Below, in pieces: positions 10,918 through 63,588 of a stretch of 64,000 nt of DNA. A program made the position numbers and the translations under genes. Location: contig OX453287.1 of assembly GCA_949710005.1 (NCBI GenBank), positions 10,261,805-10,325,804 of the forward strand, read 5' to 3'. This DNA comes from Ricordea florida (lineage: Eukaryota; Cnidaria; Anthozoa; Corallimorpharia; Ricordeidae). Each line of letters starts with the position of its first letter. Positions within the stretch are counted from its first letter, which is position 1. The notes under the pieces are model-generated. The model ran no database searches, was not told where the DNA came from, and was given only the letters and a program-made list of their open reading frames with translations.

Positions 10918-11730
10918 ATGGCTTGTAGGACATATAGGGCTTGTATGGCTTGTATGGCTTGTAGGACATGTAGGGCTTGTAGGACGTTTAGGGCTTGTAG
11001 AACATGTAGGGCTTATAGGGAATGTCGGACTTGTAGGACTTGTAGGGAATGTCGGACTTGTAGGACTTGTAGGGCATGTAGTACTTGTAGGGCTTGTAGG
11101 GCTTGTAGTACTTGTAGGGCTTGTAGGGCATGTAGGACATGTAGGGCTTGTAGAGCATGTAGGACTTGTACGGTTTGTAGGGCTTGTAGGGCATGTAGGA
11201 CTTGTAGGGCTTGTAGGACATGTAGGACATGTAGGGCATGTAGGGCTTGTATGACTTGTAGAGCTTGTAAGGCATGTAGGACATGTGGGACATGTAGGGC
11301 TTGTAGGGCATGTAGGACTTGTAGGGCTTGTAGGACATGTAGGGCTTGTAGGGCATGTAGGACTTGTACGGTTTGTAGGACATGTAGGGCTTGTAGGGCT
11401 TGTAGGGCTTGTAGGGCTTATAGGACATGCAGGGCTTGTAGGACATGCAGGGCTTGTAGGACATGCAGGGCTTGTAGGACATGCAGGGCGTGTAGGACAT
11501 GTAGGGCTTGTAGGACATGTAGTGCTTGTAGGGCTTGTAGGACATGCAGGGCTTGTTGGACTTGTAGGGCTTGTAAGGCTTGTAGGGCTTGTAGGGCCTG
11601 TAGGGCATGTAGCGCTTGTAGGACACGTAGGGCTTGTAGGACGTTTGGCTTGTAGGGGTTGTAAGACATGAAAGGATTCTAGGACATGTAGGACTTATAG
11701 GACGTGAAGGACATGTAGGGCTTGCAGTTT
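10918..11730. repeat. Minisatellite of a 9-bp unit (GTAGGRCWT)
   Basis: About 810 bases of tandem 9-mers alternating GTAGGGCTT and GTAGGACAT. Because the unit is a multiple of three and contains few stops, long frames are open on both strands ([14 protein letters not shown], [13 protein letters not shown] and [13 protein letters not shown]); they are artefacts of the repeat. A short outlier copy lies at 11825-11843. Confidence 0.97.
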
Positions 11731-22263: not shown

Positions 22264-25200
22264 CTAAGTGCATACGTAGTCTTTCAAATAGGCGGGTGGT
22301 TGTCTAGAACGCGCAGGTCGCAAAACAACTGAATCGCCTGGCAAAGGGTTGGGTGGAGTCTCTTGCACCTCTGCTGCTGGCTGGCTTGCGACTGTCATTG
22401 GATGCGCTTGTTTCACCTGGTCTGGTTCTTGGGGTTGTTGTGTTGGCTGTACTTGGTCTTCCCTTTCAGTGGTTTCAGGTGCAACAAATTTCTTCATGTG
22501 GGCTATGTTTCGCATTTTATTGTTTCCATTTGTATCTTCCAGTATGACAGCATTTCCATCCTTGTGAATAACTTTGTATGGCTCAGGTTCATAATTGGGT
22601 GAAAGTTTGTTCTCTCGAGCCTGTTTCAGTAGGACTTGATCACCCTCTTCAATGTCGCTGAATTTGGCAGCGCGTGTTCTGTCTGCATACTCCTTCTGTC
22701 TAAGTTTAGCACGAGCATCCCTGTCTTTTAAGAGCAGTTGCCATTGTGCTTCAGTGGCTCGATCCTTGGGGATTTGAACTTTTGGAAGTTTGTCACGCAG
22801 CTTCCTCCCCATCAGTAGTTCTGCAGGTGATATCCCGGTAACAGTGTGAGGGGTAACTCTGTACTGGAAGAGAAAGTCTGCAAGTGCTTTTCGCCAATCT
22901 TTACCCTCTAGACGTGCGATTCTCACAATTTTCAGTAAGGTCTCATTGCAACGCTCTACTTCGCCATTGCTTTGGGGCCAAAAGGGCACGCCCTTTTTGT
23001 GCTCGATTGCTAGATATTCTAGGAATCCCTCAAATTCCTTGGATGCAAATGGAGGTCCGTTGTCACTACGGACAGTCTCTGGTAGACCATGTGTTCTAAA
23101 AATAGCCTCCATGGACTTGATTACATGTTTTGCATCTGTTGTCTTGAGAAGGACAGCTTCGATCCAGCGAGAATAGTAGTCTACAACTACCAGGAGGTGA
23201 TCTCCACCTGTAATCTCTAGAAGATCAACCGAGATTTCTTGCCATGGGGAGTCTGGTAGTCTGGTTGATCTCACTGGCTCTGGTTTGGATCGGGGTCCGA
23301 CAAGCTGGCAGGGGTGACATGTTCGTACTACTTGCTCTACTTGCTTGTCCATTCGCGGCCACCATACTTTTTCTCGTAACCTGGCTTTAGTTCGGACCAT
23401 ACCTTGGTGTCCTTCGTGAGCCAGCATTATGGTGCGCTTTTGAAGGTTCTGTGGGATGATGATGCGGCTTCCTCTCATCACCACCTGCCCTATCACCCAC
23501 AGTTCATCTTTAACTGCTTTGTAAATTGTGCCTTGTAACTGGCTCCAATCATCTGTCATTACAGCCTGACGTAGCTTCTTTAGTGTTGGGTCTTTTTCAG
23601 AAGCGATTTCAACTTCCTTTGGTACCAACGCAGCTGGTACAGCCTCACTTACTACGCTGTACGCAAACTCTTCTGTAGCTTGAGTTTCGTGATCATGGGT
23701 AGAACCAACCGGTAGGCGGCTGAGGACATCTGCAGCATTGTCCTTGCCCCGGATATGTGTCAGCTTGTATTGGAACTGCTGTAAATAGAGAAGCCATCTT
23801 TCTATTCTTGCAGATGGGGGCTTTGACTTTGCTCCGAGTACGATGAGAAGAGGCTTGTGATCAGTGCAGATTTCAAAGCTAATGCCATAGAGGTACAAGT
23901 AGAATTTTTCACAAGCCCACCTTACAGCCAGGGCTTCTCTTTCAAATTGGGAGTACCTCATTTCAACCTTACTCAGCTTCCTGCTGGCATAATATATTGG
24001 CCTGTAGCTTCCATCTTCTTGCTCCTGTTCCAGAATCGCCCCAACTCCCACGGGTGAAGCGTCAGTTGTCAGACGAGTTTCTGCGCCCTGTCTGAAATAT
24101 GCCATCACTGGTGCATGAGTCAACCGGTCTTTTATCTCTTGGACTGACTTTGCTTCCTTTACTCCCCACTTCCACTTTCCATGTTTCGTAGTGAGGTCCC
24201 ACAATGGACTCGATATTGTTGCAAAGTTAGGAATGAACTTTGAACAGAACTGCACGGAGCCAAGAAAACTTCTTACTTCTGATGGGTTTTGGGGTGCTGG
24301 TGCCTCAACAATAGCTTTCACACGTTCACTAGACACTTTCAGCCCTTCCCCAGAGAGCACATCACCCATGTAGATCATGCTGCTGACACCAATTTCACAT
24401 TTTTCATAGTTAAGTGTAAGCCCACTTTCGTTAAGCTTGCGCATGACCCTCTGTAAGTTTTTATCATGCTCTTCATCATTTGTGCCAACAACTCGCAGGT
24501 CATCATGGAGGTTGTATGCCCCTGGGCAGTCTTGGATGATCTGCCACACAATTTGCTGGAATTTTTCCGTGGCCATGTTTACACCGAAAAGCAGGCGCTT
24601 GTATCTGTAAAGGCCATTAGGGGCAGCAAAGGTTGTAATGTCCCTTGAGTCTGGGTGTAACTCAATTTGATGGAAAGCCATATTTAAATCTAATTTAGAG
24701 AAAACTTTGGCATTTGAGACTTCTTGGAGTGTTTCTTCTACGGTGGGGACTGGGTGTTTCTCCCGCACAATAGCCTGGTTCGCTTGTCTCATATCCAGAC
24801 AGATTCTAATGTCCCCGTTAGGTTTCTCGACCACTACTAAGGGGTTGACCCAGCTGGTAGGTCCCTCTACTTTCTCAATAACATCAAGCTTCAGTAACTC
24901 CTCCAATTTCTCTGTGACTTTTTTTCGTCTACTAAAAGGAATTCTGCGTGGGGGTTGAGCAACTGGCTGCACCTTTTCGTCAATGTGTAACTTGAGTTGG
25001 TATCCTTTGAGCTTCCCCAGGCCTTGGAAGACTTTGGGAAACTTTGCCCTTAGGGAGGCCTTTCTATCTGCTTGTTTTGGATTGTTACTAGCACCATCAG
25101 ATTCAACATCACAGCTGTTAACAGGGATACCAACCCTTAAAACACCAAGCAATTCAGATGCATCGCGGCCTAATAGCGTGGCAGCTTTACTATGCGTAAC

Positions 25201-26343
25201 ATAAAACTCAACGCTCAGGGACTTTTGGGTTTGCGGTACACGTACATCAAGATTACATTTTCCTTTGATTTGGAGTGGCTCTTCAGATGCATAAGCAAAA
25301 ACTCTTTTGTTGCACTCCAACAATTTAACATTACCCCCCGTTATAAGGTTAAATACTTCCTCGGACATCAAATTACAACTAGCACCAGAGTCTATAATGA
25401 CATTAATAGTCTTATCTGCAATCTCCAGCTTTAGAGTGTTCCTGTCATCTGTCTCCCCAGTGTAAAACACGTAGAAATCATCCTTTCTTGCAGAGTTCCC
25501 AGCAGTCTCGTCCTCAGTTACTTGGCGTACATCACGTTGGCACTGTGAACTTCCTCCACGACTTTGTTTTCTGCCAGAGTTTCCACGACCGCGACTCAAA
25601 CTCCGACTAGAATCTCGCCCTTTACTCTGTTTGGAGTGACAGCACACTTCGAAATGACCCACGTTGCCACATTTCCCGCATTTGTGGTCACGTGAACGAA
25701 AGCATTCCCTCGCGAAGTGTCCCGCTTTATCGCACCGCCAACATTTTCCCTCTTTTTTGACGCTTGGAGATATGTTATTTACTTGGCCATTACGGTTAAG
25801 AACGAGTGCTTCTTTGTCATGGTATTGGCTAACGATTTCCATTAGTTTGCTCAATGTTAATGTTTCTTCGCGATACAACTTGGCCTTGAGGTTTTTGTCG
25901 TGAATGAAAGAAATCGCACGATCTCTCACCTGGTTATCCCTTTCACCTTCGTATTCACAATGTTCGGCTAATTTCTGCAAGCGTGTGATGAAATTGTTAA
26001 TGGTTTCTCCAGCGGTTGGTTGAGCTGCGAGAAACGCCTGTCTTGCCATCGGCGCGTTTTTTCTCGGTTTGAAATGTTCGGATAGGCTGTCCATAGCTTT
26101 CTTGTAATCCTTCGCTTCGCCTCGTTTGTCGGCAGGAATTGAGTTATTAAAAACGTCTCTGACTTGGGGCCCGGCGAGGTGAAGTAGAAGCGCCCTCTTC
26201 TGTGTTGGGTCGCTGATTCCCGAGGCAGTCACGTACAATTCGAATTCGTCTTTCCAAGTTAACCATCGTTGTGCGAGTGTAGCTGGCTCGCCCACAGCGT
26301 CGAACGCTTGTAAACCTGGCAGTCCGCTCAAGGATACGGCCAT
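22264..26343 (-). CDS. Gag-Pol polyprotein of Gypsy element 1
   Basis: 1359 aa in one frame. Gag-like N-terminus (residues 1-200) leads into two CCHC zinc knuckles (201-214 CWRCDKAGHFAREC; 222-235 CGKCGNVGHFEVCC). Then come an aspartic protease (VIIDSGASCNLM, near 316), a reverse transcriptase (about 470-650) whose catalytic pair sits in LHDDLRVVG (near 614; most Gypsy RTs have Y/F-x-DD), RNase H (LTTDASPVGVGA near 760), an H2C2 integrase zinc site (977-1013) and the integrase core (ISVDLLEI, RSDNGPPF, SNGEVER giving D, D, E). No frameshift or stop is visible and there is no gag/pol boundary, so proteolysis would be needed to separate the products. The start at 26343 lies about 75 nt inside the 5' LTR. 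Confidence 0.95.
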   Translation of the reverse strand: MAVSLSGLPGLQAFDAVGEPATLAQRWLTWKDEFELYVTASGISDPTQKRALLLHLAGPQVRDVFNNSIPADKRGEAKDYKKAMDSLSEHFKPRKNAPMARQAFLAAQPTAGETINNFITRLQKLAEHCEYEGERDNQVRDRAISFIHDKNLKAKLYREETLTLSKLMEIVSQYHDKEALVLNRNGQVNNISPSVKKEGKCWRCDKAGHFARECFRSRDHKCGKCGNVGHFEVCCHSKQSKGRDSSRSLSRGRGNSGRKQSRGGSSQCQRDVRQVTEDETAGNSARKDDFYVFYTGETDDRNTLKLEIADKTINVIIDSGASCNLMSEEVFNLITGGNVKLLECNKRVFAYASEEPLQIKGKCNLDVRVPQTQKSLSVEFYVTHSKAATLLGRDASELLGVLRVGIPVNSCDVESDGASNNPKQADRKASLRAKFPKVFQGLGKLKGYQLKLHIDEKVQPVAQPPRRIPFSRRKKVTEKLEELLKLDVIEKVEGPTSWVNPLVVVEKPNGDIRICLDMRQANQAIVREKHPVPTVEETLQEVSNAKVFSKLDLNMAFHQIELHPDSRDITTFAAPNGLYRYKRLLFGVNMATEKFQQIVWQIIQDCPGAYNLHDDLRVVGTNDEEHDKNLQRVMRKLNESGLTLNYEKCEIGVSSMIYMGDVLSGEGLKVSSERVKAIVEAPAPQNPSEVRSFLGSVQFCSKFIPNFATISSPLWDLTTKHGKWKWGVKEAKSVQEIKDRLTHAPVMAYFRQGAETRLTTDASPVGVGAILEQEQEDGSYRPIYYASRKLSKVEMRYSQFEREALAVRWACEKFYLYLYGISFEICTDHKPLLIVLGAKSKPPSARIERWLLYLQQFQYKLTHIRGKDNAADVLSRLPVGSTHDHETQATEEFAYSVVSEAVPAALVPKEVEIASEKDPTLKKLRQAVMTDDWSQLQGTIYKAVKDELWVIGQVVMRGSRIIIPQNLQKRTIMLAHEGHQGMVRTKARLREKVWWPRMDKQVEQVVRTCHPCQLVGPRSKPEPVRSTRLPDSPWQEISVDLLEITGGDHLLVVVDYYSRWIEAVLLKTTDAKHVIKSMEAIFRTHGLPETVRSDNGPPFASKEFEGFLEYLAIEHKKGVPFWPQSNGEVERCNETLLKIVRIARLEGKDWRKALADFLFQYRVTPHTVTGISPAELLMGRKLRDKLPKVQIPKDRATEAQWQLLLKDRDARAKLRQKEYADRTRAAKFSDIEEGDQVLLKQARENKLSPNYEPEPYKVIHKDGNAVILEDTNGNNKMRNIAHMKKFVAPETTEREDQVQPTQQPQEPDQVKQAHPMTVASQPAAEVQETPPNPLPGDSVVLRPARSRQPPAYLKDYVCT

Positions 26344-43828: not shown

Positions 43829-45567
43829 TTCAAGTGCTCAACACAGTCACACCTAACTGGGCCCATGATGTTCAACCCCAGCAACAGAGAAGTGAAAACA
43901 CAATCACAGTCAGCCTGATAGGAGAACTGCATTATGTTGCTCTACATAAAGCTCCAACAGACAATGATGACCAAGATACTGCTAACATCATTCAGAGAAA
44001 ACAGCAGGAAGATGAAGTCCGTGGCTCACCAGCATACTGGAAGACAGTATTGTTTGATTTGTTGGCCATGGTTCGCCAGCCTGGAATTCCAACATGGTTC
44101 CTGACACTTTCTGCTGCTGACAAGCAATGGCCAGAAGTCATTCAAAGCATTGGTCGACAGTATGGATGAGTGTTCTCAGATGAAGATGTGAAAAATATGT
44201 CATGGGAAGATAAATGCAACTGGCTACAATGCAATCCTGTTACTGCAGCTTGGCAGTTCCAACATCATCTTGATTTGTTCTTCAAAGAGTTTGTTGGAGG
44301 AAAAACTCATCCAATTGGTGAACAGCAGGACTACATGATCAGAATCGAATTCCAGGCTTGTGGCTCCCCACATGCACACATGGTCTTATGGATTAAAGAT
44401 GCACCCAAGCTTGGTGAAAACTCAGATGAAGAGACTGCTGCATTCATTAACAGATATCAGAAATGCACTATCCCGGATGATGAAGAGATCAAAAAACTCG
44501 AACAGTCATTCCAAAAACATGTGCATTCGGCCACGTGTAGATGTCATGGACAATGCAGATTCAAATTTCCTCATCCACCCAGCGCAGAGACTGTCATTGC
44601 TGCACCCTCAACAGATCCTGATCCTGTTCGTGAAGTAAGACAGCTAAAAGCTAGTGAAGCAACTTTGAACAGTGTGCGGCAGACCATGAAAAGGGAAGAT
44701 GTAGCGGAAAGCATTTCACTGGAAAACTTGTTGCAAATGGCTGGGACAGATATACCGAGCTATCAACAGGCACTAAAGTTGACCAAAAGTGGAAAAAAGA
44801 TTATCTTGCAAAGACAACCATCTGAGAGATTCATCAACCAGTACAATCCTGATATCTCACGCTACTGGAGACCAAACATGGACCCTCAGTTCATCACAGA
44901 TCCTTAATCGTGTATCATGTATATCATGAGCTACATGTTGAAGAGTGAACGATCAATGAGTGAACTGCTGAAAAAGGTTGCAGAAGAAAGCAGAGGAGAT
45001 GACATCAAGGCGAAATTAAGGAAAGTTGGATCAGCATTTCTAACCAACAGAGAGGTCAGTGCGCAGGAAGTAGCATACAGACTGCTGTCTCTTCCTCTGA
45101 AAAAATCAAGCAGAAAAGTGGTCTTTGTCAATACGGCACCTAAAGAGAAAAGAGTGATGATGCTGAAACCTATGGCAACCATAAAAGACATGCCTGATGA
45201 CTCAGAAAAGATCTTTTGCACATCACTGATGGATAGATATGCATCAAGACCTGACGAGTTAGAGACAATGTGCATGGCAGAATTTGCTGCTACTTACACC
45301 ACTGGTGGGAAAGATTCTAACGAGGATCAAGAGGATCACATTCCTAATATCCTCGACGACAGTGATGGTGAAGATCCTGACGAGCAGCAGATCACCAGAA
45401 CAATCATTCTTAAAAATGGTCTTGGCTGTATGAGAAAGCGGCAGAGGCATTGTGTCATCCGGTTTCATGACAAGAAATACTTCATTAATGACATTAATGA
45501 AATAATCATTAATTCATTAATGACACCCGGACAGCAAATAAACTGTAACAAGCAGTTTATTTGCTGA
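43829..45567 (+). pseudogene. Helentron OTU end, HUH Rep domain and C-terminal piece
   Basis: 43834 onwards completes the OTU domain (ELHYVALHK). Then comes the Helitron Rep domain: RGSPAYWKTVLFDLLAMV, GIPTWFLTLSAADKQWP, an in-frame TGA at about 44167, MSWEDKCNWLQCNPVTAA, and the HUH motif CGSPHAHMVLWI (about 44360). CRCHGQCRFKFPHPPS follows, then a TAA at about 44905 just before the Tyr region (MYIMSYMLKSERSM), where the nicking tyrosine would lie. The final piece (VNTAPKEKRVMMLK to MRKRQRHCVIRFHD) ends in an AT-rich palindromic sequence and a stop at 45565-45567. Two stops and no helicase mean it is dead. Confidence 0.8.
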
Positions 45568-54923: not shown

Positions 54924-56790
54924 TTGGTCGTGATGCATTGTGATATTCAGAATTTGGCCGATTTTAAGCGTCTTCTTAACGATGAAATCGAAGAAGCAAG
55001 GAAAATATTTGCTAGTAAGCAGAACACCTTCAAGAAGGAGGTCAAAACTCCAAGTGCCCTAAAAGACCTTCCTCATGATGACTTTGCCAAAGGTCATCGT
55101 TTGTTTGCACTCAAAGCCACCCCAAATGGAGACTGCTTGTTTAACGCAGTATCTATTCTTCCCTGTGGAAACGAGTCAAATTCAATGTTGTTGCGCCTAT
55201 TAGTCGCTGGAAAGTTGTACTTCAATGCTCCATTTTATGCTAATCATAGCGTGTTCACTGACACAACAAGAGTTTGCGGTAAAGGCTGAAGCGCTGGTTG
55301 CCTGTACCCCTGAGAAATGGTCATCATTCATGCATGTCTTGGAACTGGCCTCTGTGATTTCCAATCCAGTCCGTTCAATTTATCCAGACATGAATTTCTG
55401 GTTTCGGAGCCTCATCCACAGATGTGTGAGCCCAAGGTCATGTCCCACATTAGACCAACCTTGTGGGGATCAGGAACCACACAGTATTCTCTGGTCAAGA
55501 GATGGCAATTTTGATAACCGCCCCGAGGCCTGGTTTGAACCAAACCATTCCATGCCGGTCATCAGCCAGAGAGAGGGGGAGAATGTCAATCAATTACCTG
55601 CCAAACAAGGAAAAACGACTGGCTCTGGAAAGAAACAACAAGGGATGCTTTTTTCCTTTGTACAGACAAAATCAAAGTCTAAACTTGGTGCAGATAATAT
55701 CAGCCCTATGTGCACTGAAAGTCCAATGCCTAGCCATAAAAGAAATGCAGAGACCACTAAACTCAGTGGAGACGCTCAGCCCAACGTGAAAAAATCAGCA
55801 ACGTCATCAATAACACAGAAGATCCGTCATAAATGGAAAGACGAGTTTCCATGGCTTATTATTAGCGAAGACAACCTAGTCTTGTGTAGTGTGTGCTGTA
55901 ACGCCCCAGAGGTAGCAGGCAAGAACCAGTTCTTAACAGGCTGTTCTTCGACTAAAAAGGAAACTATGCAGAAACATGCCATCAGTAAAAACCATATGTG
56001 TGCCCAGGCAGCTGTGCTTGCTAAGCAAAAGCCAGTACGTGAGACAGTACTAGCTCAGAGTTTTTCCAAAGGTAGGAAGGATCAGGAAGAGAAAGATCAG
56101 AGAGAAGTAGCACTGAAGATGACAACAGCCTACTTCCTCGCTAAAGAGGAAATTCCTTTTAGAAAATTCCAGGGCCTCATTAACCTACAAAGAAAGAATG
56201 GTCTGGAGCTAACATCCACTTACGCAAACAACAAAACATGCACTGAGATGGTATCTGTCATTGGAAAGATGTTTAAGGAAGGGACAGCTGCAGAAATCAA
56301 CCAAGTCAGCTACATCAGCGTGATGGCGGATGGAGCCACGGACGCAAGAGGCATTGAGAACGAAACTGTTTTCTGTCCCTATGTGCAGGACGGACGTCCA
56401 GTAAACAGCTTTATTGGCCACAAAGCTGTTGAACATGCAAACGCAGAGGGTAAGTAAAATAAATCAGTGATGCGCAGCTTACGTTTAGTGTTCTACAAAC
56501 AAAAGTAAGGACACATGTAATATTTGGTTCAAAGAAAGAGTCGTGACGGCAATTTTAACATGTGGTTTTGTCAAACAGTGTTATGTCGCCATTTCCTAAA
56601 AACAAGTTCATTAAGTCCCCTAACAACCTATTGGCGGTTGCTGGTTATAATTTTCACTGATAGCTTTTTCCTCAGTTTGGTGTACCCATGTAATAACAAA
56701 GTTAAGTAGGGCCTCATGTTCTGTTACAAAAATTATTTTAGGACTTAAAGACACCATTTGTGCAACATTCGCAGAAGCTGGAGTAGTTGG
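54924..56790 (+). pseudogene. OTU protease-hAT transposase-like gene (ZNF862-like), truncated
   Basis: The first frame (54924-55260) has an acidic/basic helix and an OTU domain start, FALKATPNGDCLFNAVSI (Asp-Cys), then LVAGKLYFNAPFYANH. A frameshift near 55262 leads to FAVKAEALVACTPEKWSS and the rest of the OTU region. A linker with GKKQQGMLFSFV and KRNAE then precedes a TTF/BED-like zinc region (SITQKIRHKWKDEFPWL, LVLCSVCCNAPEVAG, KHAISKNH) and the beginning of the hAT catalytic domain, ISVMADGATDARGIENETVF with its first Asp. A GTAAGT donor at 56451 and a TTTTAG acceptor at 56740 connect to an exon reading GLKDTICATFAEAGVVGN. That exon stops making sense at about 56792, where the virus-like block begins. 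The RNase-H remainder and dimerisation domain are gone. Confidence 0.75.
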
Positions 56791-56794
56791 AAAT

Positions 56795-56968
56795 GGGGGA
56801 TTCTGGCTCAATGGGTGTGGTCATTAATTTTTTTTGGCTCAAAATGGTTTTATGTAAATTAGGGTGTGGCCAAATTTTATTTTTTTTTTCGTGGGGGTGT
56901 GGTATTAAAATTGAAACTTTGGGTTGGGCGTGGTAGGGGTGTGTATATATTTGCTGAAAAAAGAGAGA
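56795..56968. promoter_or_regulatory. GT-rich left edge of the virus-like block and upstream motif of its first gene
   Basis: Repeated GGGTGTGG-type words at 56812, 56871 and 56895 (AGGGTGTGGCCAAA, GGGGGTGTGG) lead to GGTAGGGGTGTGTATATATT at 56930-56949, 20 bases before the ATG of the first gene. A similar motif precedes the second gene. Confidence 0.5.
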
Positions 56969-57502
56969 ATGAGTGACATTGATGAAGTGATTTCTGCTGG
57001 TTTTAATTTTATAAACGAAGATAATTTTGAAAATAAAGATTTTATTGAAAATAATAAATTAGAAATATTTTCTTGTATTAGTAAATATCGCGCATTTATT
57101 ACAAGAATTAGATTAAATATTATTAGTGAAGATCCATTTGGATTTTATAGTATTATGGATATAAATAAATATTTTGGTTTAGATGAATCATTTGATGAGC
57201 TTGTTTTTGAATTGGATCGTTTTTCTGAGGTAACTTTTAATAGACATATTAGAGTTGGTGAAATTCATATTTATATATATACTAATAAATATAAGATATT
57301 ACATAAAAAAATATTTGATGAAAGTATAAAGGATGAAATATTATGTCCGTATGATTTTTGTAAGAGAGTTCATAAAAAGACATTTTACAATAATTTGTAT
57401 GAAGAGTTAATGCCTATAGCATGGCATCCATATAGGTTCATTAAATGGTGTCTTGATGTGGATGAGTTAGAGTATTTGAAAGAGCGTTGGGGTATAGATT
57501 GA
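56969..57502 (+). CDS. Virus-like protein of 177 aa, paralogue 1
   Basis: Starts at the first ATG (56969) after the GT-rich motif. AT-rich coding sequence quite unlike the surrounding elements. The protein is acidic and ends in a conserved-looking block, FYNNLYEELMPIAWHPYRF, IKWCLDVDE. The next gene encodes a paralogue. Endings of the type ELM-I-WHP-R---WC-D-DE remind me of small proteins in large DNA viruses of protists, but I cannot name a family and have not compared sequences. No signal peptide or membrane segment. No in-frame stop, so it is intact as far as can be seen. Confidence 0.7.
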   Translation: MSDIDEVISAGFNFINEDNFENKDFIENNKLEIFSCISKYRAFITRIRLNIISEDPFGFYSIMDINKYFGLDESFDELVFELDRFSEVTFNRHIRVGEIHIYIYTNKYKILHKKIFDESIKDEILCPYDFCKRVHKKTFYNNLYEELMPIAWHPYRFIKWCLDVDELEYLKERWGID

Positions 57503-57517
57503 TAATAATAATATATA

Positions 57518-57542
57518 TTTGTAACGTGTATCTAGTTACAAA
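57518..57542 (+). terminator. Hairpin after virus-like gene 1
   Basis: TTTGTAAC, 9-base loop, GTTACAAA: a perfect 8-bp stem, 16 bases after the stop codon. The loop is GTGTATCTA. A nearly identical 25-mer follows the next gene. Confidence 0.75.
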
Positions 57543-57562
57543 AGTAAAAGTGAAATTATTGT

Positions 57563-57590
57563 TTGGAGTTGGTAGGTGTGTGTATTTTTG
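57563..57590 (+). promoter_or_regulatory. Upstream motif of virus-like gene 2
   Basis: TTGGTAGGTGTGTGTATTTTT ending eight bases before the ATG, in line with GTGGTAGGGGTGTGTATATAT before gene 1. A shared promoter motif is the simplest reading. Confidence 0.6.
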
Positions 57591-57596
57591 CCTAAT

Positions 57597-58148
57597 ATGG
57601 ATGAAGTTATTGATGAAATTGCTAATGAAGGTTACTCTATTGATTTAAGATTTTTTAATGATACTAAATTAAGAAATCGTGATTTTATTGGAAGTTGTAG
57701 AAAGGGAATTATTAAGAATCTTTCAAATAATCGTAATTTTATTGAATTTGTTATGGTTATAATTGTACCTTATGAAAATGCTGGAGAATGTTCATTTATT
57801 AAATATGGTGGTGTAGCTTTTGGTTCAGGAGATGAGCCTTTTTCAGGAGAAGAAATTTTAAGACATTATGATTATAATGCTATTGCTTGTGGTTTTGTTG
57901 AGGAATTGTTAATATACAGTATTGTTGTTGAAATTTATGTTAATTTTTATAAATTAAATCATTCTAGTGTTTTGAATAAAGTTTTGGATGAATTGGTAAT
58001 TGAAGCTTGTAAAAGAAATCATAAGAATAATTTCTACAATGATTTGTTTGATGAATTAATGCCAATTACATGGCATCCTAGTAGAGTTTGGGATTGGTGT
58101 TTTGATGATGAACAAAAGAAAGATGTCGATGAATTTTTTAATTGTTAG
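57597..58148 (+). CDS. Virus-like protein of 183 aa, paralogue 2
   Basis: Starts at ATG 57597 (MDEVIDEIANEGYSIDL). Like its neighbour it is acidic and AT-rich, and it ends with FYNDLFDELMPITWHPSRVW, DWCFDDEQ. The similarity to paralogue 1 is strong at both ends (D-EVI--A--F-I-, DFI) and weak in the middle. The pair, each with its own upstream motif and downstream hairpin, looks like a local gene duplication in the source virus. Function is unknown; no enzyme motif is seen. Confidence 0.7.
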   Translation: MDEVIDEIANEGYSIDLRFFNDTKLRNRDFIGSCRKGIIKNLSNNRNFIEFVMVIIVPYENAGECSFIKYGGVAFGSGDEPFSGEEILRHYDYNAIACGFVEELLIYSIVVEIYVNFYKLNHSSVLNKVLDELVIEACKRNHKNNFYNDLFDELMPITWHPSRVWDWCFDDEQKKDVDEFFNC

Positions 58149-58169
58149 TAGTAATAGATGATGATAACT

Positions 58170-58194
58170 TTTGTAATGTGAATCTCGTTACAAA
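58170..58194 (+). terminator. Hairpin after virus-like gene 2
   Basis: TTTGTAAT, loop GTGAATCTC, GTTACAAA: an 8-bp stem with one G-T pair in RNA, 21 bases after the stop codon. It matches the hairpin after gene 1 at 22 of 25 bases, loop included. Confidence 0.75.
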
Positions 58195-58236
58195 TGTTTT
58201 ATTTTTAAAGATATTAATGTTTATACTAAAATTAAC

Positions 58237-58767
58237 ATGAGTTTGGATTTATTCGAAATATATATTTTAATATTATTTTTTGTTATAATGTTCGTTTTTT
58301 ATTTTGTATTCATTTATAAAAGTAAGCTTTATGGATTTAATATGATGATGGGACGTTCAAAATTCAGAATATATAATAAATATATGCGTAAGTTTCCAAT
58401 TGTAAAAAATAAGTATGAACAGGAGTGCAGGAGAATATTAGAAGAAATATTTAGAGTTGAGTTTCTTACAATAAGACCAAATTGGTTGAAAAATCCAGGT
58501 ACAGGTAGAAATTTAGAATTAGATGGTTTTAATCCAAACATAGATACGCATATAGGTAGGGGATTGGCATTTGAGTATGATGGTAGTCAGCATGTTGAAT
58601 ACACGCCTATGTTTCATAGAAATAGGAGTGATTTTCACTATCAAGTTTTCAAGGATTCACTGAAAGACAGTATTTGTAAATCAAGAGGTATAGTATTGAT
58701 TAGAGTGCCAACCTCTCTCTTATACTTCCTAGCCATCTTGATAGCTGACTTGGTACCTATTGAGTAA
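58237..58767 (+). CDS. Membrane-anchored PD-(D/E)XK-like nuclease of virus type
   Basis: 176 aa from ATG 58237. An N-terminal membrane helix (residues 6-27, IYILILFFVIMFVFYFVFIY) is followed by basic sequence and a nuclease-like domain: ECRRILEEIFRVEF (Glu), RPNWLKNPGTGRNLELDGFN (Asp), GLAFEYDGSQHVEY (E-x-D/Q pattern), HRNRSDFHYQVFKDSLKDSI and GIVLIRVP. This order (E, LELDG, FEYDG-QH, D--K, LI-VP) is that of the Vsr/restriction-like nucleases common in giant viruses and phages. The last 18 residues are encoded antisense to the C-terminus of the SLOG gene and have no such pattern, so the native end may have been lost at about 58711. Unlike the two upstream genes it lacks the hairpin. Confidence 0.65.
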   Translation: MSLDLFEIYILILFFVIMFVFYFVFIYKSKLYGFNMMMGRSKFRIYNKYMRKFPIVKNKYEQECRRILEEIFRVEFLTIRPNWLKNPGTGRNLELDGFNPNIDTHIGRGLAFEYDGSQHVEYTPMFHRNRSDFHYQVFKDSLKDSICKSRGIVLIRVPTSLLYFLAILIADLVPIE

Positions 58768-59064
58768 AACACACGCGAAGGTTAAGCCCAATACATGTGT
58801 TACACACTCCATAATAGCCCTATTACGAATTGGTCCAGCTGCTTTGCCATAATAATCCCATTGAGGTTCAAACTTCTTGAATGCTATCTCATTTTCAATT
58901 GCAAACTCTTCAGCCATAGTGTCAACTCCTCTTGCACCTCCAGATACGATACATTCAATATCTGAGAGATTCAGCTTCCATTTCTTAAGAGCTTTACTTA
59001 TTTGATCTTTCAAGAAGTCGCTGTCAAAGAAGTTTCTACTACCAACGATGGCTAATGATACCAT
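58700..59064 (-). CDS. SLOG-superfamily (DUF2493-like) protein, frameshifted near its end
   Basis: Starts at ATG 59064: MVSLAIVGSRNFFDSDFL is a Rossmann first strand with GSR, then IECIVSGGARGVDTMAEEFA is the nucleotide/sugar-binding GG-x-RG-x-D motif of SLOG proteins, and PQWDYYGKAAGPIRNRAIM the third conserved block. The open frame stops at 58729, but moving one frame near 58765 recovers GTKSAIKMARKYKREV, the family's usual last helix, so a one-base change in a TTTT run broke the gene. SLOG proteins bind or process nucleotide-derived ligands and occur in bacteria, phages and some large viruses. Its start is 43 bases after the end of the 518-aa gene on the same strand. Confidence 0.72.
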
Positions 59065-59107
59065 GATTTACGAATGGGCAATATCAATGGATTGTTTATT
59101 TCAATTT

Positions 59108-60664
59108 TCATCTGAAAATAATCCAAGCTATAGCTGCAGCTGAAATGGTTAATACCATTAGAATATCCTCATGATTTGTAGTGGCTTTTTCTGGTGTGGA
59201 TTCTTTGATTATAGGTTTAGAATCCATCTTTGGTGGAGGTGTTGGTGTTGGCCTGGATTTCACAGCCGCATGTGGTAACTTAACTTTTGAAGAACCTAGG
59301 TTATGGCTTATCCCCACAGTTTTAGTCTCCAGGTTCACGTTTGTGTTAACACCAAATTTCATCTCATCAGTAGCCTTCATAAGGTTGTTATTGTATCCAA
59401 CCACACTATCTGTGTTTATAATCATATTACTTGGCATTAACCATATTCCAGGTGCAATGGCCAAATCCAGTCTTAATTTAGCTTCTTGAGTGGCCAGTTG
59501 ATATCTTTGAACCGAGCTTGAGATGTCATTCTCTATCACACTACTTTCAAATAAAGCCAAGAATTCTTGTTGGGTTTCAATCGCTCCACCACCAGTACCT
59601 ACAATTGAATTTCTGGTGTTAACTTGAGAACCCAGCACACAGTAAACGAAAGCCTCAGCAGATCGATTCAATCTACCAAGTCCAGCTTTAGTGAGCCCAT
59701 GACCACTAGTTGGAATGAACCACGCATATTTATAATCAGCAAAGTCATCATTCCGAATGAATGAGATGAGATTGCCTTTTTCTTTCTTACCACCATCATC
59801 TGAGAATTTACCACCCTCGCCAGGCCATTGGTTTGCATCTTCATCATAGTTTCGAATCACATGAACATTCTGGAATCCACCACCTCTTCCATGGTAGCCA
59901 GCTCCATAGTCAATGAAGATGTCACCAAGACCATGGTTTCGCCCTCCTTTCCATCTAAAATCAGAATTATTAGCTATTTCGAATTCAGCGCATAATCTTT
60001 GGTAGGCAACTTTACTGTAAGGATTGTTGTTTATGACAAATGGTTGTTCATCAGGCAATGGTACACTCAATTCGTATATTATTCGCCTTATGGTGAAGTA
60101 GATATGAAACTTCATGAATCCAGCAACCACTTTGGGATAGTTCAAGCTTTCAAAGGGGCTTATACCACATCCAGAGGTTGCACACCATACTGCAAAATTA
60201 AGCTGTTGAGGCCAATAATTCATGTCAGGCGAATTCAACCACTTTCGGCCTTGCTTTCCAAATTTGAAGGTTACAAGTTGGGAAGTAAACACATTACGCA
60301 TCTTAGCAGTGAACTTCTTGGTGTTTGAAACGTAAATGTCCAATGAGGTTAGCATGGATGTGGTGTTACTGGTGAAATCATCAAAGTCAACGGCTGGTAT
60401 TGGGTAGTGATGATTTGTTATGGTTAGACTATCTGGGAATGAGCTCACTATTTTATCATTCAAACCCAGATCAATCCAAAGTAATATCTTCAAATTGGGT
60501 GGAAGTGTATCAGTCCATGTTTTGCCAGTAGGATCATCATAAGACATGACTGTTAATCCATTACGCGCCCATCTAATATACCCACCATAACTATCATAAA
60601 TAAATTTGAACTGGCTCAAGTCAGCATTTGGATATTTACTTTGGAAATCATCGAGTAAGCCCAT
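59108..60664 (-). CDS. 518-aa tail-anchored protein of the virus-like cassette
   Basis: The largest protein of the block. From ATG 60664: MGLLDDFQSKYPNADLSQF, GGYIRWARNGLTVMSYDDP (residues 27-45), DTLPPNLKILLWIDLGLND (53-71), a Thr/Ser-rich middle, WLNSPDMNYWPQQLNFAVWC (about 138-157), RRIIYELSVPLP, GGRNHGLGDIFIDYGAGY (about 242-259), AFVYCVLGSQVNTRNSIVG, and LRLDLAIAPGIWLMPSNMI. A Pro-rich linker leads to one C-terminal membrane helix (ILMVLTISAAAIAWIIF). No enzyme motif is visible. Size, abundance of aromatic/beta-rich sequence and context make a virion structural protein possible; this is inference. I recall similar unnamed proteins in cnidarian genomes, unverified. The frame is intact. 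Confidence 0.72.
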   Translation of the reverse strand: MGLLDDFQSKYPNADLSQFKFIYDSYGGYIRWARNGLTVMSYDDPTGKTWTDTLPPNLKILLWIDLGLNDKIVSSFPDSLTITNHHYPIPAVDFDDFTSNTTSMLTSLDIYVSNTKKFTAKMRNVFTSQLVTFKFGKQGRKWLNSPDMNYWPQQLNFAVWCATSGCGISPFESLNYPKVVAGFMKFHIYFTIRRIIYELSVPLPDEQPFVINNNPYSKVAYQRLCAEFEIANNSDFRWKGGRNHGLGDIFIDYGAGYHGRGGGFQNVHVIRNYDEDANQWPGEGGKFSDDGGKKEKGNLISFIRNDDFADYKYAWFIPTSGHGLTKAGLGRLNRSAEAFVYCVLGSQVNTRNSIVGTGGGAIETQQEFLALFESSVIENDISSSVQRYQLATQEAKLRLDLAIAPGIWLMPSNMIINTDSVVGYNNNLMKATDEMKFGVNTNVNLETKTVGISHNLGSSKVKLPHAAVKSRPTPTPPPKMDSKPIIKESTPEKATTNHEDILMVLTISAAAIAWIIFR

Positions 60665-60734
60665 CTTCTATCCAGTGTTTGGGTAGAAGGGTTCTAGCGT
60701 TTAACTCAATAAGATACCTTTTCATAAGTTATGG

Positions 60735-61313
60735 TTATGGCCCTCCTTTGAGTTCTTTGAGTATTTCTTTTCGTACCCTCTGTCTCAATACCATAGGGTC
60801 TTCTCCAGTCAGATTTTTTTGAGCTTTGAGTCGTATTTCAGCCTTAAGCTATTCAAACTTCTTGAGTTCTTCAATTATCAAGGAGAACTCTTCGTCAGAG
60901 ATCTTATTATCGTTAAGCGCTTTGGAAACCAAGTCTTCAATGGTGTTTATTTTTGATTTAGCCAGTGTAATGGTACTTTGGTGCTTTGTAGCTTTCTTGT
61001 CAAGACTCTTGGAGATTTGTTCACACGCTATGGAAGTACAAACGAGTATTCCACTAGTCACCCCTAAGGGTATAGCTGCCACAATTCCAACTCCACTCAA
61101 AGAGGTGCCCAGTCCACCAGCCGCTAAAATACAAGATAGTATACCACAGGTTGAGCTTGCATTTATAAGCGCGCCTTTGGACCGGTTATACTTTTTGAGT
61201 ACAGTCTCGTAATGATTCAATTCAGACTTAAGCGTTTTCAAAATGTCAGTACACTGTTGAAGTCTGAATGAGGGCCCATCAGTGGGTGTTGGACGTGGAG
61301 CCATTGGAGGCAA
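60735..61313 (-). pseudogene. 154-aa (192 with read-through) membrane/helical protein, amber-interrupted
   Basis: From ATG 61313: Pro-rich N-terminus, a helical stretch (CTDILKTLKSELNHYETVLK), a Gly/Ala/Ile-rich hydrophobic region (residues about 50-95, ILSCILAAGGLGTSL then IVAAIPLGVTSGILVC) that would span or enter a membrane, and a helical end, KSKINTIEDLVSKALNDNKI, SDEEFSLIIEELKKF. A TAG at 60849-60851 stops it, but the same frame continues for 38 more codons (LKAEIRLKAQKNLTGEDP, then RVRKEILKELKGGP) to TAA at 60735, with the same helical, charged character. The short form may be the result of one nonsense change. Homologues I recall, unverified, combine a similar hydrophobic middle with this kind of C-terminal helix. 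Confidence 0.65.
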
Positions 61314-61375
61314 TTCAGGATAGATTCTGTTATACTCATCAATATTTGTTACAACTATAACTTTCTTTTAAAATG

Positions 61376-62011
61376 TTATTTGAAACTTAAGGTGACAGTG
61401 ATGGGAGAACCCTTCATATCCAACTTTTTCCACTCACTATCGAGTATTCTTAAATCAAAGTGATTTATGGGACTATTTGATTTCTGTGCCGGTATGACTG
61501 GGTAATCCTGTGAGGGTATGTTGGCAAGGAGGTATGAGGGTGAAACATTCACAGGGCTCACTGATTGAATTTTATTCGTATAGGATGACAAGTTATCCAC
61601 TAGACTGCAAGTAAGTCTCAGGGGCTCCTTGATCTGTAGACTTATGGGGTATAACTTGCCAGGATTTATGATTTCAGGCACACCAAGCCCAATTTGTAGC
61701 CCTCTTGTGAGTTTAATGTTGAAGCTCTTGTTGGAATAGAGACAGTCAACAGTATCAGTCTCAATTATTAAGATCTTAGCATTATCAGTATCGTTGAGAA
61801 ATATAGCTTGGATACTGCGTAGTGAGTATGTGCCGGGTTGGATTATTATTAGGGGCCGGTTGCCCTCTTCCTTTAGCAATCCCTGGCGATCCTTGAAATT
61901 CACCAATCGTTTAGACATCCTACAATCCAGGAGTTGTATCTTACGAACCTTTTCCTGAGGAGGATCCAAGTACACCCTAGTTTCAGACTCATACATGTTA
62001 ACGCTCAACAT
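61376..62011 (-). CDS. 211-aa beta-rich protein of the cassette, possible minor capsid
   Basis: From ATG 62011, nine bases after the end of the 58-aa gene. Mostly short hydrophobic strands: VRKIQLLDCRMSKRLVNF, LIIIQPGTYSLRSIQAIFL, ILIIETDTV, GLQIGLGVPEIINPG, and a terminal HFDLRILDSEWKKLDMKG followed by SPITVTLSF. Endings of this shape (N/D-H-F/L-R-x-L-D, then DxxG, then I-V-L-F) are seen in penton-like or fibre-base-like proteins of Polinton/adinto-type viruses as I remember them. The jelly-roll reading is inference from strand pattern only. No stop or frameshift. Confidence 0.62.
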   Translation of the reverse strand: MLSVNMYESETRVYLDPPQEKVRKIQLLDCRMSKRLVNFKDRQGLLKEEGNRPLIIIQPGTYSLRSIQAIFLNDTDNAKILIIETDTVDCLYSNKSFNIKLTRGLQIGLGVPEIINPGKLYPISLQIKEPLRLTCSLVDNLSSYTNKIQSVSPVNVSPSYLLANIPSQDYPVIPAQKSNSPINHFDLRILDSEWKKLDMKGSPITVTLSFK

Positions 62012-62020
62012 TTTGGATTA

Positions 62021-62197
62021 TTACTCGCTCTCCTTTAAATTTCTATATTTAGCATATGAGAGGAATTGAGTTTTGGTGATTCCACAGCTGGCACATTTGC
62101 ACTTCATCATGGTCCTACCCTTGGAGGTTCTGGTGTAGGTCTCACTACCAGGAACGCATTCAGTTTGTTTTCTCTCTTTGACGCAATAGCTCTTCAT
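62021..62197 (-). CDS. 58-aa zinc-ribbon-like protein, translation start overlaps upstream stop
   Basis: MKSYCVKERKQTECVPG, then RTSKGRTMMKCKCASCGITK: Cys at 5, 14, 33, 35 and 38. It resembles the short zinc-ribbon proteins (DUF5679-like, YCVKC...CxxCG) known from large DNA viruses and Polinton-like elements, although the second Cys of the first pair is replaced by Glu. Its ATG shares bases with the TGA of the 226-aa gene (ATGA). It ends nine bases before the 211-aa gene. Confidence 0.7.
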   Translation of the reverse strand: MKSYCVKERKQTECVPGSETYTRTSKGRTMMKCKCASCGITKTQFLSYAKYRNLKESE

Positions 62198-62874
62198 TTA
62201 AATTCACTTATGCTTTTCTTTAATTCCTCTATGAAATAAAGTATAATTGCCACTATTAACAGCCAAGCGTTCTTACCCAAGAATGAAATGACTTCACCCG
62301 CAGTCTTGAATAAGAAGCTTACAATGGCGCCAATCATACCAGGTAATAACTCACCTAGTTTCTTACCAATTGTCTTTAGTCCATCACCAACCCCTTTACC
62401 CAATTTCGAGAGCCCTTTGGAGAGATTGGAGACTATAACACCAATTACCACTCCAACTGCACTCATAACTGCAAAGACTGTGAATCCATATTTCTTGAAT
62501 ATAGCCTTCACCCGGTCTCGCAATGACATTCGTTCCTGTATTTGTTCATTCTCCTTCTCCAAGTTGGCTATCTCTTGTTCTTGTTCACCAATTTCTCTCT
62601 CGAGAGTTTCTATTTGGCTACTTTTCTCTGGGATTTTCAGTGGTTTATCCCTATGGAATCTTAGCTTCTCCTTCATTTTGGTGAGTAATCCCTTTTTCTT
62701 AGCTATTTCACCATCATTAGCTTCCACAGCTTCGGCTGAGGTTGGGCCAAGATTGTCTCTTATACCCTTCAGATTCATAAATTCATCATTTACCTCACCA
62801 TCATCTTTGAAGAGTACATATGGTTTGGCATTAGACCTTCTCAATCGTACAATTACCCTCCCCCATTCATCCAT
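62194..62874 (-). CDS. 226-aa coiled-coil and membrane-active protein
   Basis: From ATG 62874, five bases after the stop of the 87-aa gene. Residues 1-60 are polar (WGRVIVRLRRSNAKPYVLF, EANDGEIAKKKGLL). Residues about 65-125 form a charged coiled coil (LEREIGEQEQEIANLEKENE). A hydrophobic segment (FTVFAVMSAVGVVIGVIVSN, about 131-150) is followed by a Gly/Lys amphipathic stretch (LSKLGKGVGDGLKTIGKKLG), a second hydrophobic stretch, GMIGAIVSFLFKTAGEVISF, and a C-terminal helix AWLLIVAIILYFI. This recalls membrane-disrupting or internal virion proteins such as adenovirus pVI in general design only. The frame ends at TGA overlapping the next ATG. Confidence 0.62.
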   Translation of the reverse strand: MDEWGRVIVRLRRSNAKPYVLFKDDGEVNDEFMNLKGIRDNLGPTSAEAVEANDGEIAKKKGLLTKMKEKLRFHRDKPLKIPEKSSQIETLEREIGEQEQEIANLEKENEQIQERMSLRDRVKAIFKKYGFTVFAVMSAVGVVIGVIVSNLSKGLSKLGKGVGDGLKTIGKKLGELLPGMIGAIVSFLFKTAGEVISFLGKNAWLLIVAIILYFIEELKKSISEFK

Positions 62875-62879
62875 GGTAG

Positions 62880-63143
62880 CTATGAATTTAGCCTTTGCAA
62901 TATTAAATTTGGGGAATTTTGCTTTGATTTTAGCCCAACCTTCATCTTGGGCACTCTATCTATCAAGGGCCTGGTTTCATCATCACCACCAAATGATGTC
63001 TCTTCTATATCTGGGTCAAAACGAGTGGTGGATGTAAATGTGGTTAGTGGGGTGCCATAAGTTGTGGTATCGCCATCACCACCACCAGCAGCCCCAGGTT
63101 CATTTAGTGTAGTAGGGTCTAGCTCAGGATCAGCAGTTGCCAT
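62880..63143 (-). CDS. 87-aa Asp/Thr/Gly-rich protein of the cassette
   Basis: From ATG 63143. Low-complexity N-terminal half (GAAGGGDGDTTTYGTPLTTF), then ETSFGGDDETRPLIDRVPKM and a short basic tail. No known domain. It starts 35 bases after the stop of the preceding partial gene and ends five bases before the next start, which supports a co-transcribed cassette. Confidence 0.55.
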   Translation of the reverse strand: MATADPELDPTTLNEPGAAGGGDGDTTTYGTPLTTFTSTTRFDPDIEETSFGGDDETRPLIDRVPKMKVGLKSKQNSPNLILQRLNS

Positions 63144-63178
63144 ATTTGATGCTAAATATGGGAACTTCTAAATTGATT

Positions 63179-63385
63179 TCAAAAGTCTCGGATATTCATA
63201 TCTTTGATGCTCCATATTTCATCACGGAAACCAGTATGTGAAGTGCAGTCTGGTATCTTTCTAACTATAGCCATTGGCAAAACACGCTGTTTGATTTCAC
63301 TCTTAGCAATGGCTATGGGATCAAAGGCCCCTTTCCATTCTATGACAGGTTTCTTACCAAATTTGAGTTGTTTTGCTCTTAAACC
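63179..63385 (-). CDS. C-terminal fragment of a larger protein, cut by Gypsy element 3
   Basis: An open minus-strand frame without a start runs from about 63385 to TGA at 63179: GLRAKQLKFGKKPVIEWKGA, FDPIAIAKSEIKQRVLPMAI, GFRDEIWSIKDMNIRDF. The frame keeps the composition of its neighbours and its stop is 35 bases from the next ATG. The upstream part is beyond the LTR at 63386-63588 or outside the window. No family recognised. Confidence 0.55.
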   Translation of the reverse strand, partial: GLRAKQLKFGKKPVIEWKGAFDPIAIAKSEIKQRVLPMAIVRKIPDCTSHTGFRDEIWSIKDMNIRDF

Positions 63386-63588
63386 TGTGACAATGTTGCT
63401 TTACAACATATATCTATATATACATATAAATATAGAATAGCCGCTATGTCCTGGGCACCAGCCGCCCTAAGGTCCCGTATGCCAGTGTTTTCACTTGTCG
63501 TCTGCTCTGAGATACAGGAACTATTAAACGTTGTGTTAAGCAGATCTTCGGTGTCCTTTGTCACTTGCACGGCACAGACAACGACACA
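63386..63588 (+). repeat. 5' LTR of Gypsy element 3 (left edge uncertain)
   Basis: It ends ACGACACA at 63588, directly before a tRNA-primer-like sequence. The left edge is TGTGAC at 63386 or TGTTGC at 63394, both TG starts. It includes TATATCTATATATACATATA and a G/C-richer second half. Confidence 0.65.

What the first reader, a model, noticed from the sequence alone, without database searches (positions are those of the whole stretch)
56795..63385. Virus-like gene block integrated in an animal genome, with no family I can name
Eleven frames in 6.6 kb, tightly spaced, intronless and unlike any transposon around them. The minus-strand set (partial gene, 87, 226, 58, 211, 154+, 518 aa, SLOG) looks like a virion/morphogenesis cassette: a zinc-ribbon small protein, a coiled-coil membrane-active protein, a beta-rich protein and a large tail-anchored protein. 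The left end interrupts an exon of an OTU-hAT gene and the right end is cut by an LTR, so it is physically integrated and not contamination. I see no integrase, DNA polymerase, packaging ATPase or double-jelly-roll capsid within the window, so it is either a partial Polinton/adintovirus-like element or something not yet classified.
Basis: partly seen in the sequence, partly recalled or inferred. Interest (0 to 1): 0.92.

Follow-up and report, generated by a model that had tools for sequence, protein, structure and literature searches.

The report
Left third of an integrated Polinton-like virus
The gene block is one end of an 18-kb virus-like mobile element (Polinton class) that is present in many copies in this animal genome; it looked orphaned only because its integrase, polymerase, packaging and capsid genes lie just past the window edge, behind an inserted retrotransposon.

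Summary
The block is real, integrated and virus-like, but not unclassifiable. It starts with a 193-bp terminal inverted repeat (56782-56974, AGTAGT end); its partner ends at C16:10341708 (192/193 identical), with a 5-bp target duplication. The edge at 63385 is not an element end: a 4,990-bp LTR retrotransposon cut the element, which resumes beyond the window with a Pox_A32-like ATPase, a Capsid_N-type capsid gene, an rve integrase and a divergent polymerase-like gene. Without that insert it is 18,128 bp. The genome holds at least 83 places with the 518-aa gene; copies are under purifying selection (median dN/dS 0.10). PLV/giant-virus-type capsid gene plus rve integrase, no protease detected: this resembles the chimeric Polintons reported from Nematostella (PMC4642659), so a new member of a known kind. 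Less ordinary: a SLOG gene beside the 518-aa gene, terminal genes that differ between copies and, in this copy, start inside the repeats, and a polymerase that PF03175 misses. The window copy is decayed.

The parts
56777..56781 (.). 5-bp target-site duplication GCTGG; second copy directly after C16:10341708
56782..56974 (+). left terminal inverted repeat (193 bp, begins AGTAGTTGG); includes the start codon of the first gene
   Evidence: 192/193 identical to the inverse of L038:5712-5904; ATG at 56969
56969..57502 (+). terminal gene 1, 'LMPIAWHP' family; a relative sits at the other terminus (L038:4968-5717)
   Evidence: no Pfam family
57597..58148 (+). terminal gene 2, second 'LMPIAWHP' family member (30% identical to the first)
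58237..58767 (+). nuclease-like cargo gene (PHROG HNH/homing endonuclease group, E 1e-7); found beside only some copies
58729..59064 (-). SLOG (YAcAr) gene, next to the 518-aa gene; C-terminus changed in this copy
   Evidence: Pfam 3.3e-11; ORFs of at least 85% length in 13 of 20 loci, this 111-aa one included, median dN/dS 0.26
59108..60664 (-). 518-aa protein with hydrophobic C-terminal tail; presumed virion or membrane protein
   Evidence: 83 scored places; 1693 homologues; median dN/dS 0.10; no Pfam or PDB relative
60849..61313 (-). part of a ~202-aa coiled-coil/hydrophobic gene, disrupted in this copy
61376..62011 (-). 211-aa conserved protein, candidate minor capsid protein (role inferred)
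   Evidence: 59 homologues; no fold match by sequence
62021..62197 (-). 58-aa zinc-ribbon protein, DUF5679-like
   Evidence: Pfam E 1e-5, 26 bits, just below cut-off 27
62194..63143 (-). one gene split into 226- and 87-aa frames in this copy (310-395 aa in 5 of 8 others): coiled coil plus hydrophobic segment
63179..63385 (-). 3' part of a further small gene, cut by the LTR element; element resumes at L037:4376 (C16:10330180)
63386..63588 (+). LTR (203 bp, identical to the other LTR at L037:4173-4375) of a 4,990-bp LTR retrotransposon inserted in the element; duplication AAACC at 63381-63385

Best explanation
The cassette is the left ~6.6 kb of an 18.1-kb integrated double-stranded DNA virus or transposon of the Polinton/Maverick class, of the chimeric type with a PLV/giant-virus-like capsid gene. 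Shown: paired inverted termini, target duplication, integrase, packaging ATPase, capsid-type gene, high copy number, recurrent gene order, purifying selection between copies. Inferred: the rve integrase inserts linear element DNA (5-bp duplication); the polymerase, probably protein-primed, copies it from its termini; the A32-type ATPase packages it into capsids; the 518-, 310-, 211- and 202-aa proteins are virion or membrane proteins; and the genes next to each terminus are exchangeable accessory genes expressed from signals in the repeats, which in this copy already carry the start codon. The window copy is dead: capsid, integrase, polymerase and other genes are split and an LTR retrotransposon sits inside it.
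For: Termini 192/193 identical and target duplication; host exon frame restored when flanks are joined, uninterrupted paralogue present; element resumes after the LTR insert and matches ATPase-capsid-integrase of other copies; Pox_A32 2.7e-11, rve 4.7e-6 (27.2 bits, cut-off 32.6), Rho_N 4.8e-14, Endonuclease_7 7.3e-6; Capsid_N in 27 of 38 capsid sequences, best 2.1e-7; IS481 transposase profile 3.7e-13 on the integrase (49.7 bits, far below that family's cut-off of 224); at least 83, 107 and 122 scored places with the 518, capsid and integrase genes; 34 of 83 listed 518 copies with an integrase upstream on the opposite strand against 0.19 expected, and 13 of 122 listed integrases with a listed capsid gene within 300 bp, all 13 on opposite strands; dN/dS 0.10; exact contig lengths shared by listed 518 and 211-aa homologues, 10 against 0.2 after shifting.
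Against: Polymerase not recognised by DNA_pol_B_2 nor by PDB chains; its identity rests on motifs (meaning recalled) and similarity to another unassigned polymerase-like protein; a comparison with a PF03175-positive polymerase of the same genome failed. Target duplication is 5 bp, whereas 6 bp is reported for vertebrate Mavericks (PMC8097293). No protease among the ORFs scanned. No confirmed capsid, 518 or polymerase relative in IMG/VR viral contigs. Capsid fold not modelled. In the capped lists 43 of 83 518 copies have neither a listed integrase nor a listed capsid gene in the expected place.
Confidence: 0.93

Rival explanations
1. An endogenous fragment of a giant virus (NCLDV) rather than a Polinton-class element.
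For: Capsid_N and Pox_A32 are NCLDV-type profiles; dUTPase beside one copy and nuclease cargo beside some.
Against: Short element with paired inverted termini, target duplication and an rve integrase in at least 122 scored places; giant-virus fragments are not known to me to amplify as bounded 18-kb units (recalled).
Confidence: 0.03
2. A true adintovirus (adenovirus-like hexon, OTU-bearing PolB).
For: rve integrase plus long polymerase-like gene with zinc-finger and endonuclease-VII segments; OTU-like segment seen by eye only.
Against: The capsid gene matches Capsid_N (27 of 38); no adenain-type protease found; adintovirus hexon references were not available for a BLAST test.
Confidence: 0.1
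3. A new virus group whose virion module is unrelated to any known capsid, in which the Capsid_N similarity is coincidental.
For: Nine of the ten window ORFs scanned, the 518- and 211-aa proteins among them, have no Pfam family above its cut-off, and the 518- and 211-aa profiles find no credible PDB relative; the capsid profile finds none either.
Against: Capsid_N in 27 of 38 sequences and an ATPase-capsid-integrase gene order.
Confidence: 0.04

Closest known systems
Chimeric Nematostella Polintons with PLV-type capsid gene (e.g. P-3_NV; PMC4028283, PMC4642659, passages read)
   Same: rve integrase and polymerase of Polinton style joined to a PLV/NCLDV-like capsid gene; same reported host group if the window is cnidarian
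   Different: Sequences were not at hand, so relatedness is not shown; whether they carry SLOG, the 518-aa gene or TIR-borne start codons is unknown
Maverick/Polinton elements of vertebrates (PMC8097293, passages read)
   Same: (AGT)2 terminal motif, intronless genes, integrase
   Different: 6-bp target duplications there, 5 bp here; no protease detected here; this genome's own DNA_pol_B_2-positive loci lie apart from this family (0 of 76 within 20 kb of a listed 518 copy)
Meldviruses such as Meld23486 (PMC11071296, section 16 and passages read)
   Same: adintovirus-style PolB and integrase with pox/megavirus-like virion genes
   Different: sequence not compared
Polinton-like viruses (PLVs; PMC4642659, passages read)
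   Same: capsid type (as far as Capsid_N tells), no maturation protease
   Different: PLVs generally lack an rve integrase; this element has one

Membership tests
Polinton/Maverick | rve integrase | tested here: met
   rve E 4.7e-6 (below curated cut-off), IS481 profile 3.7e-13 (below cut-off); at least 122 places
Polinton/Maverick | protein-primed B-family DNA polymerase | tested here: inconclusive
   No PF03175 or PDB match; A-, B- and C-type motifs visible in the alignment (motif meaning recalled); similar to another polymerase-like protein; no match to a PF03175-positive one
Polinton/Maverick | terminal inverted repeats with AGT-type ends | tested here: met
   193 bp, 192/193, AGTAGT
Polinton/Maverick | 6-bp target-site duplication | tested here: not met
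   5 bp here; the one other copy held with both termini shows 4 of 5 matching. PMC4642659 names polymerase and integrase, not this, as the universal signatures
Polinton/Maverick | packaging ATPase | tested here: met
   Pox_A32 2.7e-11, 43.9 bits, cut-off 22.8
Polinton/Maverick | double jelly-roll major capsid protein | tested here: inconclusive
   Capsid_N in 27 of 38 sequences; fold prediction switched off
Polinton/Maverick | adenovirus-type protease (74% of Polintons per PMC4028283) | tested here: not met
   none among the ORFs scanned; a very divergent one could be missed
Adintovirus | hexon recognisable by BLASTP to reference adintoviruses | not testable with these tools
   references not held; Starrett 2021 not held
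Adintovirus | OTU-like domain in PolB | tested here: inconclusive
   no Pfam OTU match; a Cys/His segment was seen by eye only
Polinton-like virus (PLV) | no rve integrase (general, with an exception named in PMC4642659) | tested here: not met
   integrase present

The most novel reading that the evidence does not exclude
A separate lineage of integrating animal DNA viruses that combines a giant-virus/PLV-type virion module with an rve integrase and a polymerase outside the usual Polinton clades, keeps a SLOG nucleotide-sensor gene as a core gene, and uses its terminal repeats as exchangeable expression slots (promoter plus start codon) for accessory genes at both ends.
Probability: 0.35. Interest if true: 0.55.

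Novelty: new member of a known kind. Interest (0 to 1): 0.36.

Why it matters
It resolves an apparent orphan virus cassette: the missing hallmark genes lie beyond the window edge. The family offers many naturally varying copies (at least 83 places) in one genome, so exchange of terminal genes and the role of a SLOG gene in an animal virus-like element can be studied by comparison. dN/dS of 0.10 between copies that differ at about 0.3 synonymous changes per site, while this copy's own repeats differ at 1 of 193 sites, suggests that lineages diverged while replicating as working elements and integrated later.

Tried and rejected
Tried without result: 518-aa and 211-aa sequences and profiles against PDB and Pfam (one weak DUF7329 match in 1 of 52); capsid sequence and profile against PDB (only chance-level matches such as rexA); relatives in IMG/VR by two 518, two capsid and one polymerase scan and one scan for the LMPIAWHP family, all without a confirmed relative; phage records for the capsid protein. 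My recollection that the LMPIAWHP motif is common in giant viruses therefore stays untested. PF03175 finds many Polinton-type polymerases in the genome, none near the listed 518 copies. Profile comparison with one such polymerase failed (probability 1.5%). NCLDV fragment, adintovirus and wholly new virus group were considered and put lower (see rivals). A chimeric assembly join at 56.79 kb is made unlikely by the paired termini and duplication; reads were not available.

The lists are capped by the tool, so counts are lower bounds. In one search I used 107 of 108 listed capsid matches (a 52-residue piece dropped), 37 of 39 nuclease matches (two split pieces dropped) and 76 PF03175 places (second pieces of one gene dropped; the list itself was cut by the tool); for the LMPIAWHP family no co-location was computed. 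A script slip left the window out of that scan; it was checked. One search stopped before L037; its ORFs were listed. The alignments used 58 of the 120 listed 518 homologues (of 1693), 37 of 120 listed capsid homologues (of 439) and 51 of 59 homologues of the 211-aa protein, each with one query sequence.
Full report
OBSERVATION. The 518-aa protein is encoded in 83 scored places of the same 537.8-Mb genome, the window's own included; the others are 83-95% identical, and 65 of 83 have no internal stop. It has 1693 database homologues. This is a repeated element, not a single relic. Of ten window frames scanned, Pfam recognises only the SLOG frame (YAcAr, 3.3e-11) above cut-off, with the 58-aa frame close below it (DUF5679, 26 bits against 27).

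BOUNDARIES. The left edge is a 193-bp terminal inverted repeat at 56782-56974. Its partner lies at C16:10341516-10341708 (L038:5712-5904), 192 of 193 bases identical. Both sides carry GCTGG. The host sequence on the two sides, when joined, reads as one open exon-like frame, and a paralogous sequence without the insert exists at C12:9774403-9774531 (76%). In a word search for the terminus, 6 of 8 other left-hand pieces and 2 of 4 right-hand pieces gave a plausible end, some with 2-3 differences in 15 bases. The one other copy with both ends in hand (C1:46.09 Mb) has repeats 89% identical over 140 bases and flanks agreeing at 4 of 5 bases.

RIGHT SIDE. At 63386 a 203-bp LTR begins; its identical partner ends at C16:10330179, flanked by AAACC on both sides; the insert is 4,990 bp. 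The element then resumes (L037:4376 onward) and matches other copies across the ATPase, capsid and integrase region (L037:6361-9621); a 209-aa ATPase frame is open there (L037:6968-7597), and the polymerase frames follow in L038. Without the LTR insert the element is 18,128 bp.

GENE CONTENT. In window orientation, right of the cassette, the eight other copies show (where open) small genes of 134-138, 113-140 and 131-136 aa, a variable gene of 122-329 aa, a 160-177-aa gene, a 197-231-aa ATPase (Pox_A32, 2.7e-11), a capsid-type gene (387-498 aa in the four longest complete frames), an integrase of up to 329 aa on the opposite strand (rve 4.7e-6; IS481 profile 3.7e-13, both below cut-off) and a long polymerase-like gene with Rho_N and Endonuclease_7 segments. 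Capsid_N matches 27 of 38 capsid sequences, best 2.1e-7. The polymerase-like gene is not recognised by DNA_pol_B_2 or by PDB chains; motifs resembling B-family motifs A, B and C are visible (motif meaning recalled). It resembles a second, 1491-aa polymerase-like protein outside the element (profile probability 98%; BLASTP 1e-15), which in turn matches a PF03175-positive protein only over a short stretch away from those motifs (2e-10). Direct comparison with that protein failed. No protease was found among the ORFs scanned.

RECURRENCE. Of 83 listed 518 copies, 34 have a listed integrase upstream on the opposite strand within 20 kb, 28 of the 34 at 7.0-8.8 kb; none on the same strand; one has an integrase downstream; 0.19 expected by chance. 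12 of 83 have a listed capsid gene upstream on the same strand, none on the opposite one; 40 of 83 have either. 13 of 122 listed integrases have a listed capsid gene within 300 bp, all on opposite strands. None of 76 PF03175 places lies within 20 kb of a listed 518 copy (all). The lists are capped, so these are lower bounds. In the protein database, listed homologues of the 518- and 211-aa proteins share 10 exact contig lengths (0.2 expected after shifting), 518 and capsid 4, capsid and 211 aa 4, and two lengths occur in all three lists: the genes travel together elsewhere too. No organism names were given.

SELECTION AND DECAY. Among 20 loci, ORFs of at least 85% length of the 518, SLOG and 202-aa genes were found in 14, 13 and 13; the SLOG count includes the window copy's 111-aa frame with its changed end. 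Median dN/dS is 0.10, 0.26 and 0.15; median dS 0.30, 0.27 and 0.51. The window copy is decayed: the 310-aa gene is split into the 87- and 226-aa frames, the 202-aa gene is shortened, the SLOG end is changed, the capsid gene lies in three frames, the integrase in two pieces and the polymerase-like gene in three frames.

TERMINAL GENES. The stretch between the left terminus and the SLOG gene differs between copies. In the window it holds two LMPIAWHP-type genes and a nuclease-like gene; in other copies a dUTPase (1e-11, one copy, L029), cysteine/histidine repeat frames (L029, L030, L036, by eye), a short Rho_N-type protein (L034 29.8 bits, above cut-off; L033 24.8, just below), or a relative of the nuclease gene (L033, L035; 72-73% identical). 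The distance from terminus to the 518 stop is 0.9-2.3 kb in five copies, 6.9 kb in L035, which holds a retrotransposon-type ORF, and 5.3 kb in L036, which may include a piece of another element. Of 37 nuclease places, 15 lie within 8 kb of a listed 518 copy, 13 of these 0.35-1.1 kb beyond its stop on the opposite strand; 26 lie within 20 kb of a listed 518 or integrase. In the window copy this stretch is AT-rich (26% GC after the repeat, against 40% for 58710-63385); in four other copies the contrast is smaller (30-34% against 36-38%). Both terminal genes of the window copy start with an ATG inside the repeat (56969; L038:5717), and a LMPIAWHP-type gene sits at both ends. Reading the repeats as expression slots is inference.

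LITERATURE. PMC4642659 (passages) reports two sea-anemone Polintons with PLV-type capsid genes, possibly chimeric with Polinton polymerase and integrase; PMC4028283 (passages) reports P-3_NV capsid similarity to PgVV. PMC10120064 (section 9, passages) found cnidarian capsid genes to be the only metazoan ones outside the main Maverick-Polinton cluster. PMC11071296 (section 16, passages) describes 'meldviruses' joining PolB and integrase with pox/megavirus-like virion genes. PMC11071308 (abstract, sections 6 and 11, passages) mentions a Stylophora element with a separate terminal protein. PMC8097293 (passages) gives AGT-type ends and 6-bp duplications for vertebrate Mavericks. PMC6431247 (passages) added nothing used. 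A search for SLOG together with Polinton found no paper in the held library.

VERDICT. An integrated, decayed copy of a high-copy Polinton-class element of the chimeric type; a new member of a known kind, with some unusual accessory features.

Noticed in passing
L034:2218-6690 (C7:18175549-18180021): A 1491-aa polymerase-like ORF lies outside the element next to one copy; it has no Pfam match although DTDS- and NSFYG-type motifs are visible. Possibly another divergent Polinton lineage.
   Followed up: partly
window 10918-11655: Cysteine/arginine-rich repeat ORFs on both strands with strong GC skew (0.416), probably a minisatellite.
   Followed up: no
window 38590-39444, 39890-40369, 44170-45567: Two frames share roughly their first 140 residues and two share roughly their last 140, with a 998-aa reverse-transcriptase-like ORF (40566-43562) between them: looks like a duplicated, Helitron-like gene interrupted by a LINE (by eye, names from recall).
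   Followed up: no
window 22264-26343: Open 1359-aa gag-pol type ORF on the minus strand, a retrotransposon by eye.
   Followed up: no
whole genome: At least 76 places match DNA_pol_B_2, so other Polinton-type lineages coexist in this genome, apart from the listed copies of this family.
   Followed up: partly
L035 (C8:21483166-21490165): Another copy carries a retrotransposon-type ORF (992 aa) inside its left cargo region: a second case of a retroelement within an element.
   Followed up: no
L029:3321-5204: An inverted piece of the polymerase end of a second element lies directly beside the left terminus of the C14 copy, so copies abut or nest.
   Followed up: no
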